Shown here one piece after another: positions 1,780 to 9,208 of a DNA stretch of 64,000 nucleotides. The stretch's first letter is position 1. Each line of letters starts with the position of its first letter. The position numbers and the translations under genes were made by a program. This DNA comes from Marinomonas sp. TW1 (GTDB lineage: Bacteria; Pseudomonadota; Gammaproteobacteria; Pseudomonadales; Marinomonadaceae): contig NZ_JSEE01000001.1 of assembly GCF_001625355.1 (NCBI RefSeq), forward strand, positions 124,001 to 188,000, in the 5' to 3' direction. A model generated the notes under the pieces. It was not told the origin of the DNA. It made no database searches and was given only the letters and a program-made list of their open reading frames with translations.

Positions 1780-2020
1780 TTTTCATCTCCTTAACTATCG
1801 TAAACCTACAATAGCCTCTAATTGCTCACGATTGTACTTTTTGCGCAAAACTTTACTGATAGTTAATTATCAAGAAACACACGTCCCATCCTGCTTAAAA
1901 CGAATTACTTGCAAATATTGACTCATATAGCTAAGATTCACACATCTCATCTACCATGTGTAGAAGGAGTTACGACACCGTCCTCGTAAGAGGACGAGGT
2001 CAGCTTTTCTTAGTTGCTTC

Positions 2021-2503
2021 CTATACATTATCTTTATTTCGTTCCCAACGTTTATTGTACTTCCTTCTTTCATGTTCACGCTCAACATAAAATGCAGTCC
2101 AAGGCAGAATATAATCGCCTCTATCATCTAGTACAACCAAATATCCTTCTTGCTCATACCAAATATGAATTCGCTTATTTTTACCTTTTAGCTCAGCCCA
2201 CACTTTTAAAGATGAATGTTGATCGTTTTCAATAATTGGCTTTGGCCAACGAATGCGCTCGCAACGACGAAAATCAGGTATTCTTTCACTTTCATCATCC
2301 CCCGTACTAGTCATATGCCAGAAAGTCGCAGACTTTCCATCATATTCAGGGTAACGCTTTAGCCCTAACCTAACGCCACGAAAAATAGGCTTTGATATGA
2401 CAAAATCTGCTTTAAAATATGTATAGATAGCGTTTAAATAACGATTCCAATCTCCATCGTAATCATTAAATAAGACCAAATCTGGCAGCCATGCCCGTGT
2501 CAT
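2021..2503 (-). CDS. Hypothetical protein translationally coupled to the DUF3800 gene
   Basis: The start chosen is the ATG at 2503, which overlaps the TAA of the DUF3800 gene (TAATG) and has GGGAG eight bases upstream; the frame also offers a start eight codons earlier. The 160-residue product (MTRAWLPDLVLFNDYDGDW...) is soluble, rich in Trp, Tyr and charged residues, with a strongly basic C-terminus (EREHERRKYNKRWERNK). The tight coupling implies that it acts with the DUF3800 protein. I do not recognise a family. An adaptor or nucleic-acid-binding role is possible, but nothing in the sequence shows it. Confidence 0.6.
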   Translation of the reverse strand: MTRAWLPDLVLFNDYDGDWNRYLNAIYTYFKADFVISKPIFRGVRLGLKRYPEYDGKSATFWHMTSTGDDESERIPDFRRCERIRWPKPIIENDQHSSLKVWAELKGKNKRIHIWYEQEGYLVVLDDRGDYILPWTAFYVEREHERRKYNKRWERNKDNV

Positions 2504-3210
2504 TAGGAAACTCCCTGTCCATTCCAAATTAAAAGATTAAACTTACTTTCTCTAATCAAAGTATTGCGCGTTAATTGATAACCACTACGCTCTTTAATTC
2601 TTGATATTAAATCAAGCTTCGCTTGATTCGTTGTGAGGCCTCGATGTAAATAGGCTAATGCACCTATCAACAAATCTGCCAATTGAAGCTGTTCTGCTTC
2701 ATGAGAATGAATACGCTGCATTTTTTCTATCATATGCTGAGAAAAATCATAATGGCTATTGCAAACAACATCGTGCAACTTAGCAATTTTTTCATGACCC
2801 AACGTATCTTTAATATCAATGTAGACACGGTATTTTGATTCTGGATCAAAAATACTTTTCAACATAACAAAGTACATTTTGTAGTACCAATCATCATGAG
2901 TTTGACCAAAACTATGATGATTAAGGACTGTTTTATCAGGTACGACTAAACCTCTAAAGTGACAATCATCGTCATCAAAAAAGTAATCAATGACATCAAG
3001 ATAAAAGTCCAACCTTCCTTTACTTACCTTAGTCCATTTAATTTCAAAATCTGCTGACAATCCATGTTTTACCTTAATCTCTCGAAGCCGTTTGGATATT
3101 TCAACTCGTTTGGTCACAGGACACCAAAGCGCCCCCAACGTCATCACGTTAATGCCATCATTTTCTAAGTGACAAGATTCATCACAATAAACATTATAAA
3201 GTTCGCTCAT
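2503..3210 (-). CDS. DUF3800 domain protein (RNase H-like fold)
   Basis: The 235-residue product begins MSELYNVYCDES. The DES motif (Asp10-Glu11), a central acidic Y-I-D-I-K-D strand and the late QLQLADLLIGA helix are the hallmarks of DUF3800, a family with a predicted RNase H-like fold and candidate nuclease acids. A strong AGGAGGG site lies before the ATG. It is the middle gene of a three-gene operon: 15 bases follow the 39-aa gene, and its stop overlaps the start of the 160-aa gene. DUF3800 proteins are frequent in phage, plasmid and defence surroundings (family knowledge). A defence role here is inference. Confidence 0.8.
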   Translation of the reverse strand: MSELYNVYCDESCHLENDGINVMTLGALWCPVTKRVEISKRLREIKVKHGLSADFEIKWTKVSKGRLDFYLDVIDYFFDDDDCHFRGLVVPDKTVLNHHSFGQTHDDWYYKMYFVMLKSIFDPESKYRVYIDIKDTLGHEKIAKLHDVVCNSHYDFSQHMIEKMQRIHSHEAEQLQLADLLIGALAYLHRGLTTNQAKLDLISRIKERSGYQLTRNTLIRESKFNLLIWNGQGVS

Positions 3211-3225
3211 AGAAACCCTCCTTGG

Positions 3226-3345
3226 TTACAAAGCCTGTGCCACCAGCGTGTCCGCGAGGTGCCATTGTGTTTGTTTGATCTCGGTTAACTGGTCGCCATC
3301 CATCAAGAACAGCTCAATCGTTTTTGCGTATTGCTTGTTGTTCAT
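3226..3345 (-). CDS. 39-aa leader gene resembling the N-terminus of a GIY-YIG-type protein
   Basis: ATG at 3345 with GGGAGA five bases upstream, TAA at 3226, 15 bases before the DUF3800 start. The product opens MNNKQYAKTIELFLMDGD, close to the conserved opening (T-I-E-L-F-L-x-D-G) of a group of GIY-YIG nuclease-family proteins, but it diverges and stops after 39 residues. It is either the stump of a truncated gene that kept its ribosome site or a genuine small first gene of the operon. The family link rests on about ten residues. Confidence 0.4.
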   Translation of the reverse strand: MNNKQYAKTIELFLMDGDQLTEIKQTQWHLADTLVAQAL

Positions 3346-3452: not shown

Positions 3453-4352
3453 TTAAATCGTCTTGGCAACGTCTACAATGAGTTTTCGTAACCAAGTCAG
3501 TCCTACGTCGTTCTCGCGATTACGATGGTACTGCATGGTTTGCGTTAACATAGGAATGCTCATGGGCGGTTCCAGAATTTTAATGGGCAAGGATTTACGC
3601 ACTATATTCGCGAGCCGGCTATGGACCGTTGCGATACGCTGAGTGCCTATGATCAGCACTGGCGGCGCCAGTAAATTGGTGGTGGTAATTTCGATTTTTC
3701 GACTGACGCCATAATTATTCATAAACCAGCCATCAAAGGCTGGTGACTGCTGCTTGCCATAACTCACCACAACATGGCCAGCGGTTTGGTAGTCTTCAAA
3801 GGTGATTTTGTCACCAATTGAGGTATTGCCTTCCCAGCAAATGCATTTATACCCTTCTTGATATATTTCATCGTACGGGTGATCTTCCAAAGCAAATTGG
3901 CGTGGAATGAATATTAGATCAACCCCGCCTTTGTCGAGTAGCTCAGTCTCGCTGGTTGCCAATAATTCTAGACGTATATTAGGCGCTTCTTGAGCCAGCA
4001 AACTAATGACTTTCGTGATTAACACCATGGTCGTCAGCTCTGAGGCGACAATTTTATAACAGCGATCATCCGTTGTTGGGTCAAATTTCGGTTGATTAAT
4101 GATGGTGTTTTCCATCTCAACAAGAATATGCCTAACGGGTTTTGCTAGGCTTTCCGCTAATTGTGTGGGAACCAAATCTCGCCCCACCAAGACAAACAAT
4201 TCATCGTCAAAGTATTGTCGTAATCGCGACACGGCGGAGCTCATGCCCGATTGGCTCAAATGAATACGCTCGCCAGCACGGGTAATATTTCGCTCCGTAA
4301 TAAGCGCGTCCAACGCGACCAATAGATTTAAATCAAGACCTCTAAAGCGCAT
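3453..4352 (-). CDS. LysR-family transcriptional regulator, NodD-like group
   Basis: The start chosen is the ATG at 4352 (MRFRGLDLNLLVALDALI) because GGTGGA sits four bases upstream and two paralogues in this window begin in the same way; an ATG pair five codons earlier has no ribosome site. The 299-residue product has the winged HTH (NITRAGERIHLSQSGMSSAVSRLRQYF, about residues 21-47) and a PBP2-type inducer domain ending in the WLRKLI motif typical of NodD relatives. It is divergent from vanA at 4720 across a 367-bp region and probably controls it. Inducers of the NodD group are usually aromatic (family knowledge). Confidence 0.9.
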   Translation of the reverse strand: MRFRGLDLNLLVALDALITERNITRAGERIHLSQSGMSSAVSRLRQYFDDELFVLVGRDLVPTQLAESLAKPVRHILVEMENTIINQPKFDPTTDDRCYKIVASELTTMVLITKVISLLAQEAPNIRLELLATSETELLDKGGVDLIFIPRQFALEDHPYDEIYQEGYKCICWEGNTSIGDKITFEDYQTAGHVVVSYGKQQSPAFDGWFMNNYGVSRKIEITTTNLLAPPVLIIGTQRIATVHSRLANIVRKSLPIKILEPPMSIPMLTQTMQYHRNRENDVGLTWLRKLIVDVAKTI

Positions 4353-4562
4353 ATTTTCCACCATCATTTTTATCGTTATATAGGGATCTAATTAATCTAT
4401 TTTAAAGATGCCTTTGCGTCAATGCGTACCGTCTTTTTAACTGATTTTTGGAGCAATGCTGTGAAGCTGGTGCCTAGCGACCTTGATCTAGTATTGAATT
4501 TATCGATACCAACCAACGCTGTTAAGGATTGGTGCATCGTGATTTGCATTGCTATATTGCTG

Positions 4563-4650
4563 AAAAATCACATATGGCATTAGGAAAAGTAAGGTTATCG
4601 CATTGCCACCATGTCTAACATGGGCCTCCCATTTCATATGTGACTTTTTC
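4563..4650. promoter_or_regulatory. Divergent regulatory region with long-spaced inverted repeat before vanA
   Basis: In the 367-bp gap between the LysR gene (4352) and vanA (4720), TCACATATG (4568-4576) is matched by CATATGTGA (4635-4643), a perfect 9-bp inverted repeat with 58 bases between; A and T runs outside the arms lengthen it. Two widely spaced half sites upstream of a LysR-controlled gene fit a regulator-bending arrangement, but this is inference. Nothing coding is visible in the rest of the gap. Confidence 0.4.
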
Positions 4651-4719
4651 TTGGTCAGGTCACTCCGGGCAGGAAGTCGCCACCGATATTATAAAAATAA
4701 AGACAGGAATATTATCATT

Positions 4720-5793
4720 ATGTATCCATTCAAATATAAACAATCTATCGTGAAAAACCGTTGGTACATGGCCGCGTTCTCGACTGAGATTACCCGTGAG
4801 CCAATGGAACGCACCATGCTTAACAAGCCAGTTGTTATGTATCGTAAAGAAGATGGAACACCTGTGGCCATGTATGGACTCTGTCCGCATCGCTATTTGC
4901 CTTTAGTAGAAGGACGAGTAGAGGGCGATGCCATTGTATGTGGTTATCACGGTTTTAAATTTGCCGATAACGGCGATTGCATTGATATCCCCTCACAAGA
5001 CAAAGTCACTGGAAAAATGTGTCAGCCAGTGTATAAACTTGTTGAACGTGGCCCAATATGCTGGATTTGGATGGGTGATGAAGACAAATGTGACACAGAT
5101 TTAATACCACCTTATGACGATTTTGGTTTGGACCAGCCAGGCTGGGATTTCCATTCGGCAAACTACTTTCACATTGATGGCCGCTCGCAATTATTGGTTG
5201 ATAACTTAATGGACCTTACCCATTTGCCGTATGTTCATCATCATGTTGATGGTAAGGATGCGATGGCAAAAATTCCATTGGTCACAGAAGAACACGAAAG
5301 AAGCTACCGTGTTCTGAGACATGGTAAAGCACCTTGGAATGACTACTTCAAACTGGTGTTTGGTCCAGAAGCACAATTTGAAGGTTTGTGTGACTTCTCC
5401 ATTCGAAGTGATTTCTACGGACCTGAATTTATTTCAACCAGCCTCCCTATTATCTCAGCGGTTCCAGGTAAAACAGAAGTTCCTAAAGAACTGGGCACCT
5501 TGATGATTCTCCATGGCATCACCCCTGAAACCGATAACACGACGCATTATTTTGGTTTTTCTACGCGTAATTTCCGACTCGGCGATGAAGCATTGGATAA
5601 TTTCCAACTCGCAGCCGATCAGAAAATTCGTGGCCAAGACGTTGTAGCAATTAATGCCGTGGAAAAACGATTGGATTTTGCCGTAACACAACAACGAGAA
5701 TTATTGGTTGCGGCAGACAAACCCGCTGTGCAAGTACGCCGAAAAATTGAAGCTATGCTGGCTGTGGAAGATGCACCTTTAGAAGAGGCCTAA
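4720..5793 (+). CDS. vanA: VanA-type Rieske non-heme iron oxygenase (aromatic O-demethylase alpha subunit), copy 1
   Basis: 357 residues starting MYPFKYKQSIVKNRWYMAAF. The frame is open further upstream, but the paralogue at 8132 aligns only from this Met. The Rieske cluster ligands are C55-x-H57 and C74-x2-H77 (CPHRY... CGYH). The mononuclear iron motif is D161-N-L-M-D-L-T-H168 with H173. Length and motifs match vanillate O-demethylase oxygenases and dicamba-type demethylases, which use electrons from a VanB reductase to remove a methyl group as formaldehyde. The reductase follows at 5957. The absence of protocatechuate genes nearby makes a methoxylated aromatic other than vanillate possible. 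Confidence 0.9.
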   Translation: MYPFKYKQSIVKNRWYMAAFSTEITREPMERTMLNKPVVMYRKEDGTPVAMYGLCPHRYLPLVEGRVEGDAIVCGYHGFKFADNGDCIDIPSQDKVTGKMCQPVYKLVERGPICWIWMGDEDKCDTDLIPPYDDFGLDQPGWDFHSANYFHIDGRSQLLVDNLMDLTHLPYVHHHVDGKDAMAKIPLVTEEHERSYRVLRHGKAPWNDYFKLVFGPEAQFEGLCDFSIRSDFYGPEFISTSLPIISAVPGKTEVPKELGTLMILHGITPETDNTTHYFGFSTRNFRLGDEALDNFQLAADQKIRGQDVVAINAVEKRLDFAVTQQRELLVAADKPAVQVRRKIEAMLAVEDAPLEEA

Positions 5794-5956: not shown

Positions 5957-6913
5957 ATGCTTAACGTTATTATTCGAAATAAAATACTTGAAACCCCAAA
6001 CATTGCCAGTTTCGAGTTAGTACGTGAAGACGGGGAAAAAATGCCGGCTTTTGAAACCGGTAGCCATGTCGATGTACACATTGCAGAAGGTTTAATCCGC
6101 CAATATTCTTTGATTAACCACCCTAACTCTGACGAATTCTACAAAATTGCGGTGTTAAATGACGATCAATCCCGAGGGGGATCAGTCGCCCTTCACAATC
6201 ATGTTCAAATTGGCGACAAAATCCGCATTTCTGAACCTCGCAATCTCTTCCCACTGAATGTAAAAAGCGAGAAAGTAATGCTTTTTGCTGGTGGTATTGG
6301 CATTACGCCTATCATGTCCATGGCCATTGAACTGAATAACCTTGGAGTGGATTTTGAGCTGCACTATCACACTAGATCGAAAGCCGACACGGCATTTTAT
6401 GAACAACTCAGTCATTGCTCATTTGCATCCAAGGTATTCTTTTACTGTGACAACACAAAAGAAGAAAGTCATGACGCTGTCAATAAAGCCTTAAGCTCTT
6501 TTACTGACAACACACATCTATACACCTGTGGCCCAGTGGGCTATATGGATTATATTTTTGACAGCGCAAGAGCAAACTCTTGGAAAGAAGAAAACCTGCA
6601 CAAAGAAGTCTTTAAGGCAGAGCCAAAAGCCTCAGAATCAGGCGACCAAGCGTTTAAACTCATTTTAAGTCGTTCTGGTTTGGAAATAGACGTCGCAGCG
6701 GATCAAACCGCTCTAGAAGCCATCGATGCTGCTGGTGTTACTGTGGATGTCTCTTGTGAAATGGGCATCTGTGGTGCCTGCTTAACCAAGGTAACAGCCG
6801 GTGTGCCAGACCATCGAGATGACTTTTTATCGGATGACGAAAAATCGAAGAACGATCAATTTACACCTTGTTGCTCCAGAGCAATCAGTGATTCTTTGAC
6901 ACTCGATCTCTAA
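5957..6913 (+). CDS. vanB: VanB-type reductase: FMN/NAD(P)H and plant-type [2Fe-2S] ferredoxin
   Basis: 318 residues. RQYSL (48-52) is the flavin-binding motif, AGGIGITPIMSM (about 111-122) the pyridine-nucleotide site, and the C-terminal ferredoxin has C267-x4-C272-x2-C275 with a last cysteine at 305 or 306. The order FMN-NAD-Fe2S2 is that of phthalate dioxygenase-reductase/VanB (class IA). AAGGAAG lies nine bases before the ATG. It is the only such reductase in the window, so it may serve both VanA paralogues. Confidence 0.92.
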   Translation: MLNVIIRNKILETPNIASFELVREDGEKMPAFETGSHVDVHIAEGLIRQYSLINHPNSDEFYKIAVLNDDQSRGGSVALHNHVQIGDKIRISEPRNLFPLNVKSEKVMLFAGGIGITPIMSMAIELNNLGVDFELHYHTRSKADTAFYEQLSHCSFASKVFFYCDNTKEESHDAVNKALSSFTDNTHLYTCGPVGYMDYIFDSARANSWKEENLHKEVFKAEPKASESGDQAFKLILSRSGLEIDVAADQTALEAIDAAGVTVDVSCEMGICGACLTKVTAGVPDHRDDFLSDDEKSKNDQFTPCCSRAISDSLTLDL

Positions 6914-7933: not shown

Positions 7934-8131
7934 AATGAGAGTATTTAGCCGAAATATAGGTATAAACAGCATATATTATTCTTTGGTGAGGCTCTAGACT
8001 AGAAATCGCTTAATCGCGAAACCAACCTTTCTTTGTCTTTTCTAAGCACCTCAAAAGACGATAGCCAGACTCGAACAAATCACACTGGGCAGACCGTGAT
8101 TTGTCATTATAAATATAAAGAGGTTTATCTG

Positions 8132-9208
8132 ATGTACCCATTCAAATACGACACTTCCATTGTCAAAAACCGCTGGTATATGGCCGCGTTCTCTAACGAG
8201 ATCGCGCGCGAGCCCATGGAACGAACAATACACAGCAAACCCATTGTTATGTATCGCAAAGAAGATGGTACGCCCGTGGCCATGTACGGATTGTGTCCGC
8301 ACCGTTATTTTTCTTTAGTCAAAGGTCACGTGGAAGGCGATCACATTGTTTGTGGGTATCATGGCTTTAAATTTGCGGATAATGGCGACTGTGTTGAAAT
8401 ACCCTCACAAGATACGGTGCCTAAGAGTTTCTGCCAGCCCGTTTACCCACTAGAGGAACGTGGCCCAATTTGTTGGATTTGGATGGGAGACATAGAAAAA
8501 TGCGATACCAATCTGATTCCGCCATACCATGATTTCGGTTTAGACAACCCTGACACTTACTACAGCTCAGAAAATTACTTCCATGTAAAAGGCCGCTCAC
8601 AATTATTGGTCGACAACCTAATGGATCTGACCCATCTACCTTACATACACCAACAGTTAGGAAAAGGTGGCGATACCTTGAAAAAAATCCCCATGGTCAC
8701 TGAAGAACGCGATGAAAGTTATCGTATTTTTCGAAATGGAAAAATGCCTTGGAATCCTTTCTTAGAAACTCTTTTTGGTAAAGAGGCCGCATACGAAGGT
8801 CTCGCCGATTTCGTGCATTTAAGCGATTTTTATGGCCCTGAACTGGTCAAAACCAGTATGCCAACCATCACCCAAATACCCGGTAGAGAGGATGTGCCTA
8901 AGGAATTAGGTCATTTGGCCATCTTGCACGGCTTAACACCTGAGACGGAAACCACGACTCACTACTTTGGCTTTTCTACGCGTAATTTTAGACAAGGTGA
9001 TGAATGGCTAGACAAGTTTCAATATGAGTCTGAAATGCAGGTCCGCCAACAAGATGTGGACGCCATTGAAGATATGGAACTCAGAATAGATCAAGCAGCA
9101 CAATTTCAGAGAGAACTGATCGTGGGCGCTGATAAGGCCGCTATCCAAGCACGAAGAAAAATTGATGCCATGCTCGCTGCGGAAAACCCACCAACGAGAA
9201 CCGAATAA
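8132..9208 (+). CDS. vanA: VanA-type Rieske non-heme iron oxygenase, copy 2
   Basis: 358 residues from MYPFKYDTSIVKNRWYMAAF, with AGAGG nine bases upstream. Rieske ligands CPHRY and CGYH and the iron motif DNLMDLTHLPYIH are intact. It is clearly a paralogue of the protein at 4720 (long identical runs), and even the 40 bases before the start resemble the first copy's leader. The largest differences are after the iron motif, in the substrate-pocket half, so the two copies may take different substrates or positions of one multi-methoxylated ring. There is no second reductase gene beside it. Confidence 0.9.
   Translation: MYPFKYDTSIVKNRWYMAAFSNEIAREPMERTIHSKPIVMYRKEDGTPVAMYGLCPHRYFSLVKGHVEGDHIVCGYHGFKFADNGDCVEIPSQDTVPKSFCQPVYPLEERGPICWIWMGDIEKCDTNLIPPYHDFGLDNPDTYYSSENYFHVKGRSQLLVDNLMDLTHLPYIHQQLGKGGDTLKKIPMVTEERDESYRIFRNGKMPWNPFLETLFGKEAAYEGLADFVHLSDFYGPELVKTSMPTITQIPGREDVPKELGHLAILHGLTPETETTTHYFGFSTRNFRQGDEWLDKFQYESEMQVRQQDVDAIEDMELRIDQAAQFQRELIVGADKAAIQARRKIDAMLAAENPPTRTE

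What the first reader, a model, noticed from the sequence alone, without database searches (positions are those of the whole stretch)
2021..3345. Compact DUF3800 operon with an unknown coupled partner and a small leader gene
Three genes with strong ribosome sites, a 15-base gap and a TAATG overlap form a tight unit in a ragged, remnant-rich region. DUF3800 has a predicted RNase H-like nuclease fold, the partner is basic at its C-terminus, and the 39-aa gene resembles the opening of GIY-YIG proteins. This could be a small undescribed defence or toxin-antitoxin-like module.
Basis: partly seen in the sequence, partly recalled or inferred. Interest (0 to 1): 0.6.

Follow-up and report, generated by a model that had tools for sequence, protein, structure and literature searches.

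The report
RNA-guarded nuclease pair with phage antidotes
The two genes are a marine bacterium's copy of a nuclease pair known from phage P1 (rlfA, rlfB), and next to them lies a previously uncatalogued small RNA that accompanies the pair across bacterial phyla and also occurs alone in phages, which suggests that the RNA restrains a defence toxin and that phages carry the antidote.

Summary
The DUF3800 gene and its partner are real, intact and under strong purifying selection. They are homologues of phage P1 RlfA/RlfB and match PADLOC's untested candidate system PDC-M04. All 80 GTDB relatives examined keep the pair adjacent. RlfA is predicted to have an RNase HII fold. RlfB most resembles BECR-fold RNase toxins (moderate support). 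The 39-aa "leader gene" is not a gene but a deletion scar: its start comes from a GIY-YIG protein gene and its end from hsdS. In related Marinomonas and in about half of evaluable loci the pair sits in type I restriction-modification operons.

It has two covarying hairpins and usually a sigma-70 promoter, follows rlfB in every relative with downstream sequence, and matches no Rfam family. Copies without rlfAB occur in phages. In phi3T-like phages the copy lies beside an Rfam DUF3800-VIII RNA, and in one viral contig beside an abiF RNA.

Best reading: an RNA-restrained nuclease defence module, with phage-borne RNA antidotes. Structure, linkage and conservation are shown; toxicity, RNA inhibition and phage protection are inferred.

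The parts
2503..3210 (-). rlfA: DUF3800 protein, 235 aa, predicted RNase HII-like fold; invariant D10 E11 E56 D132 D135 D155 D179 across 67 homologues
   Evidence: Pfam PF12686; PADLOC PDC-M04A 1.2e-97; P1 RlfA 52.6% identity over 97%; AF2 pLDDT 89.4; Foldseek RNase HII 4.4e-6 and VIA Z 13.0; alignment A6
2021..2503 (-). rlfB: partner, 160 aa from the ATG overlapping the rlfA stop by 1 nt; predicted BECR-like fold; invariant F30 H63 R74 R80 W102
   Evidence: PADLOC PDC-M04B 4.6e-75; P1 RlfB 43% over 84%; AF2 pLDDT 94.5; best structural neighbours CDI toxin, HigB, colicin D, Z 5-6; alignment A7
1943..2016 (+). rlf RNA: ~73-nt convergent small RNA, hairpin 1 (CUCAUCUAC/GUAGAAGGAG) plus terminator-like hairpin 2
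   Evidence: CM R1 75.8 bits; covariation; no Rfam match
1909..1937 (+). predicted sigma-70 promoter of the RNA, TTGCAA-17-TAAGAT, 8 nt before the conserved core
   Evidence: 8 of 12 consensus bases; inference, 20% of shuffled upstreams reach 8
3226..3345 (-). 39-aa ORF: deletion scar fusing the first 18 codons of a GIY-YIG protein gene to the last 21 codons of hsdS; not a leader gene

Best explanation
rlfA-rlfB-rlf RNA is a mobile three-part defence module. RlfA (RNase HII-like nuclease) and RlfB (BECR-like RNase, the more likely toxin) are translated together. The small RNA, transcribed from its own promoter towards the operon, probably binds the proteins, most likely the DUF3800 subunit, and keeps them inactive, as RNA antitoxins do in type III TA and AbiF systems. 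Infection that disturbs the RNA, or in restriction-linked loci the restriction enzyme, would release the nuclease and stop phage growth. Phages counter it by carrying free-standing copies of the RNA. Shown here: the three parts, their linkage, the covarying RNA structure, the folds at the stated confidence, restriction linkage, and orphan RNAs in phages. Inferred: nuclease activity, toxicity, RNA binding and inhibition, trigger, phage protection.
For: Pair strictly linked. RNA found after rlfB in all 80 GTDB/phage loci with downstream sequence: 72 by motif plus 8 by CM; absent from DUF3800 loci with other partners. 18 pairs, 98.1% of cells paired, 14 pairs with two-sided changes, covariation 0.483 against 0.189 shuffled (0/500). 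Promoter score >=9/12 in 62% against 3.4% of shuffles. The RNA is convergent in most loci but co-directional, still with its own promoter, in Lachnospiraceae. Orphan RNAs: 53 of 57 viral contigs lack rlfAB in the held flank; phages phi3T, Vibrio 1.084.O and Geobacillus PT9.1 have no RlfA or RlfB match anywhere in their records. Orphan rlf RNA lies beside DUF3800-VIII RNA (L215, L164, L166, L178) and abiF RNA (L160). Restriction linkage: HsdS immediately upstream in 27/80 against about 2 hsdS genes per genome; hsdM or hsdS nearby in 40 of 71 evaluable loci, with at least 7 forced changes on the tree. rlfAB dispensable in P1 by CRISPRi (PMC10695390) and in a variable region (PMC9603915, PMC6906374). 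Precedents: pseudo-ToxI (PMC3475682), AbiF RNA antitoxin (PMC12373285).
Against: No experiment on any member. BECR fold of RlfB is moderate (Z <=6.1, Foldseek E 0.4). In P1 a C1 operator is annotated upstream of rlfA, so the operon may be silent in the lysogen, odd for a prophage-borne defence. RlfA is far more conserved than RlfB, unlike a typical antitoxin/toxin pair. Orphan RNAs could have a separate phage role. Related contigs inflate the orphan count.
Confidence: 0.6

Rival explanations
1. Lytic-replication accessory: RlfAB and its RNA help phage P1 replicate lytically, as the 'replication-like function' name says, and bacterial copies are phage remnants.
Against: Non-essential by CRISPRi (PMC10695390). 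Of 680 plasmid records matching the P1 repL-bplB region only 98 cover 80% of it (i.e. hold rlfAB); many others hold hokD or other cargo. Most bacterial copies sit with restriction genes, not phage genes.
Confidence: 0.1
2. Restriction-guard (PrrC-like): RlfAB is held inactive by the neighbouring type I restriction enzyme and released when a phage inhibits it; the RNA only tunes expression.
For: hsdM-hsdS-rlfA-rlfB order in many lineages; hsdS stop 15 nt from rlfA start in Marinomonas; PrrC precedent (PMC2610378).
Against: 31 of 71 evaluable loci, P1, Bbif-1 and the window lack adjacent hsd genes, yet the pair stays intact; the RNA, not hsd, is the invariant neighbour.
Confidence: 0.15
3. The RNA is a guide or activating cofactor of the RlfA nuclease, and phage copies are decoys or triggers rather than antidotes.
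For: RNase H-fold proteins are often RNA-guided; DUF3800 occurs as an accessory in type V-A2 and VI-F CRISPR loci (PMC10910872, PMC12669027).
Against: The RNA core is nearly invariant across phyla, leaving no variable guide segment.
Confidence: 0.1
4. The conserved element is only a bidirectional terminator, and the pair is an ordinary type II toxin-antitoxin operon.
For: Hairpin 2 resembles an intrinsic terminator; gene order resembles antitoxin-toxin.
Against: Hairpin 1 and the GAAGGAG tract are conserved far beyond terminator needs, orientation flips between clades, it has promoters, and it exists alone in phages.
Confidence: 0.05

Closest known systems
Phage P1/P7 RlfA-RlfB (RapA-RapB)
   Same: Homologous pair, same order, short overlap, and the same RNA 3' of rlfB (L088:4149-4221, -)
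   Different: P1 copy is phage-borne beside repL with a C1 operator; the RNA is not annotated there
PADLOC-DB PDC-M04 (A and B)
   Same: Both proteins match at full length
   Different: Computational candidate without a tested function; no RNA component in the library's protein models
DUF3800-I to -XI RNAs of Rfam
   Same: Small RNAs found beside DUF3800 genes; VIII is convergent at the DUF3800 3' end (L113, L114)
   Different: Different sequence and structure; the DUF3800 loci carrying them here had no BECR-type partner
Type III TA (ToxIN) and AbiF with its RNA
   Same: RNA that neutralises a protein toxin; phages acquire mimics (pseudo-ToxI)
   Different: Two proteins, RNase HII-like plus BECR-like, single-copy RNA with its own promoter instead of upstream repeats
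PrrC in EcoprrI
   Same: Nuclease gene nested in a type I restriction operon
   Different: Unrelated proteins; RlfAB has its own RNA and often stands alone

Membership tests
RlfAB / PDC-M04 | RlfA-type DUF3800 directly followed by RlfB | tested here: met
DUF3800 (PF12686) | Pfam gathering score | tested here: met
   43.5 bits against cut-off 21
RNase HII | RNase H class II fold | tested here: met
   Foldseek 4.4e-6, VIA Z 13.0 over 171 residues; predicted model only
RNase HII | GRG substrate motif after the catalytic D-E (established knowledge of the family) | tested here: not met
   RlfA reads YCDESCHLE; conserved across 67 homologues; so not filed as RNase HII
BECR-fold RNase toxins | BECR fold | tested here: inconclusive
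   top neighbours almost all BECR, but Z 5-6 and Foldseek E 0.4; profile homology to a PBECR-like partner, HHalign 97.5%, E 7e-12, itself only a weak Pfam PBECR match
BECR-fold RNase toxins | RNase activity | not testable with these tools
   no assay
Type III toxin-antitoxin | RNA antitoxin made of tandem repeats upstream of the toxin gene | tested here: not met
   single RNA downstream, opposite strand, own promoter
Type III toxin-antitoxin | RNA neutralises the toxin | not testable with these tools
   inferred only
Rfam DUF3800 RNA families | match to a DUF3800-x covariance model | tested here: not met
   none at E<=5 in window; none at the RlfAB/BECR loci scanned or at E<=1 at the rlf RNA itself
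PrrC-like restriction guard | gene nested in an hsd operon | tested here: inconclusive
   met in Marinomonas relatives and 40 of 71 loci, not met in the window itself

The most novel reading that the evidence does not exclude
A new kind of RNA-restrained system, an RNase HII-like/BECR two-protein nuclease held by a single structured RNA, against which phages keep arrays of antidote RNAs for several RNA-restrained defences at once (rlf RNA with DUF3800-VIII RNA in SPbeta-type phages, with abiF RNA in L160, and among tRNA genes).
Probability: 0.45. Interest if true: 0.9.

Novelty: new variant of a known kind. Interest (0 to 1): 0.8.

Why it matters
The function of DUF3800 proteins and their RNAs has stayed open since those RNA motifs were described. 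Finding an RNA that always accompanies one DUF3800 clade, and the same RNA alone in phages beside RNAs of other defence families, turns this into a direct test: does the RNA switch the nuclease off, and do phages use it? It would also explain P1 rlfAB, a named but unexplained phage operon, and offer a way to find antidote RNAs in phage genomes.

Tried and rejected
Rfam scans of the locus found no catalogued RNA. PDB sequence searches gave nothing useful. NCBIfam and Pfam do not know RlfB. Leader gene as small antitoxin or leader peptide: rejected as a deletion scar. CRISPR accessory role: CRISPR arrays were not searched for and none of the listed neighbour families were Cas, so not pursued. 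The 2004 P1 genome paper is not in the library. No paper mentions PDC-M04. The repL/small RNA paper search gave nothing relevant.

Full report
Observation. The two main ORFs exist as described: DUF3800 at 2503-3210 and its partner at 2021-2503, both on the minus strand with a 1-nt TAATG overlap. The pair is conserved: all 80 nearest GTDB loci have both genes adjacent, and in an unbiased draw of 398 Pseudomonadota genomes every RlfB hit (5) lies beside an RlfA hit. Within Marinomonas both are under purifying selection (dN/dS 0.03-0.05 and 0.08-0.11 where dS is not saturated), and no window-specific change hits an invariant residue.

Identity. Both are homologues of phage P1 RlfA and RlfB (52.6% and 43% identity) and full-length matches to PADLOC's phage defence candidate PDC-M04 A and B. 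'PDC' systems are candidates (usage in PMC11514479).

The leader gene is a scar. Its first 18 codons match the start of a GIY-YIG-like/DUF4357 protein and its last 21 codons match the end of HsdS; in L011 these lie about 2.1 kb apart. In L008 hsdM-hsdS-rlfA-rlfB are contiguous with the same 15-nt gap. The window lost the restriction part and kept rlfAB. Another Marinomonas genome (G028) lost rlfA and half of rlfB but kept the RNA described below.

Context. The gene immediately upstream is hsdS in 27 of 80 loci and the second upstream is hsdM-like in about 20; HsdR domains occur downstream. With roughly two hsdS genes per genome (113 domain hits in 33 genomes) this cannot be chance. On an RlfA tree, restriction linkage changes at least 7 times across well-supported branches, so it is recurrent rather than inherited once. 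This is the slot occupied by prrC, the anticodon nuclease silenced by its linked type I enzyme (PMC2610378).

Folds. RlfA is predicted as RNase HII-like (pLDDT 89; Foldseek 4.4e-6; Z 13.0), in line with the RNase H assignment of DUF3800 in PMC10910872 and PMC12669027. D10-E11 would correspond to the catalytic D-E of RNase HII (inference from position), but the GRG motif is absent. RlfB gives a confident model (pLDDT 94.5) whose best structural neighbours are almost all BECR RNase toxins at Z 5-6. That is suggestive, not proof. More distant DUF3800 proteins (L100-L108, L094) carry a diverged partner that is homologous to RlfB by profile (HHalign 97.5%, E 7e-12) and weakly resembles Pfam PBECR. 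Loci with an RlfA-profile E-value below about 1e-30 have such a partner (the exception, L109, is cut near a contig end); weaker DUF3800 proteins do not.

The third component. Immediately 3' of rlfB, on the opposite strand in most loci, lies a conserved RNA of about 73 nt: a short hairpin (CUCAUCUAC-CAUGU-GUAGAAGGAG) followed by a terminator-like hairpin. In the window it is at 1943-2016 (+). The alignment of 70 sequences has 18 pairs, 98.1% of cells paired and 14 pairs with two-sided changes; the covariation score is 0.483 against 0.189 in shuffles and 0.06-0.13 in slid controls. A sigma-70-like promoter scoring at least 9 of 12 lies upstream in 62% of cases against 3.4% of shuffles. In Lachnospiraceae and relatives (L060-L063, L065, L087) the RNA is co-directional with rlfAB and, in those inspected, keeps its own promoter, so it is a separate gene and not merely a terminator. 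The model finds it in every rlfAB locus with downstream sequence, including 8 missed by the motif, and in none of the DUF3800 loci of other types. P1 and Bbif-1 have it; it is not annotated in the P1 record. No Rfam family matches it.

Orphan RNAs. Five surveyed genomes carry the RNA (E<=1e-12) without rlfAB nearby: one in a prophage beside terminase-like genes (L150), one beside a DarTG-like pair (L156). A scan of IMG/VR for the 24-nt core gave 57 contigs, all with a model hit; only 3 have rlfAB and one has an rlfB fragment. Among isolated phages, phi3T and the SPbeta group, Vibrio 1.084.O and Geobacillus PT9.1 have it, and their records hold no RlfA or RlfB match. In phi3T and related contigs (L164, L166, L178) an Rfam DUF3800-VIII RNA follows within about 50 nt; in L160 an Rfam abiF RNA precedes it by 135 nt. 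18 of 53 orphans lie within 500 bp of a tRNA gene against 8.6 expected at random positions in the same loci, though several of these contigs are related.

Mechanism. AbiF is neutralised by its RNA through direct binding, in cis and in trans (PMC12373285); phages evade ToxIN with pseudo-ToxI RNAs (PMC3475682) and a PrrC-type system with tRNAs (PMC11555353). Phage clusters that combine the rlf RNA with DUF3800-VIII and abiF RNAs are what one expects of antidote arrays. I therefore propose that the rlf RNA restrains RlfAB and that phages carry it to disarm the system. Because DUF3800 proteins with and without a BECR-type partner have associated RNAs, the RNA more likely contacts RlfA (inference). 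In restriction-linked loci the module may act as a second line when restriction fails (inference).

Limits. No activity has been shown. The 80 loci were chosen by similarity to RlfA, and the covariance model was trained on most of them. Orphan status of viral contigs refers to the held flank (up to about 14 kb), except for the named phages, whose whole records were searched. The C1 operator upstream of P1 rlfA speaks for lytic-phase expression and against a simple prophage defence role.

Noticed in passing
L215:2501-2688 (phage phi3T), L164, L166, L178: Orphan rlf RNA followed by an Rfam DUF3800-VIII RNA; the stretch between also resembles the convergent RNA of the second DUF3800-partner type (CGCUGAACC...AAUCAGCG), seen by eye only.
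   Followed up: partly
L160:10230-10472: Rfam abiF RNA 135 nt upstream of an orphan rlf RNA in a viral contig, on the same strand.
   Followed up: partly
L100-L108, 3' of the partner gene: A second DUF3800-partner type has its own conserved convergent RNA with a U-run terminator; not in Rfam at E<=1 for L103 and L107, consensus fold -20.7 kcal/mol.
   Followed up: partly
L169, L191, L204: Orphan rlf RNA in phage tRNA arrays that also carry a ROOL RNA.
   Followed up: no
L007 (G028):1260-1733: A Marinomonas relative has lost rlfA and the first half of rlfB but keeps the RNA and the GIY-YIG gene start.
   Followed up: partly
L156:2-1433: Orphan rlf RNA beside genes that read like DarT and DarG and an AAA ATPase (by eye).
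   Followed up: no
P1-like phage-plasmids, repL-bplB interval: The rlfAB slot is occupied by hokD or other cargo in many P1-like plasmids.
   Followed up: partly
L081 and L083: Identical RlfA in an Aeromicrobium MAG and a Lysobacterales MAG: recent transfer or MAG contamination.
   Followed up: no
window 4603-5793 and 8033-9208: Two similar Rieske-type oxygenase-like ORFs flank a reductase-like ORF (5957-6913), with a LysR-like regulator at 3453-4367; by eye, unrelated to the finding.
   Followed up: no
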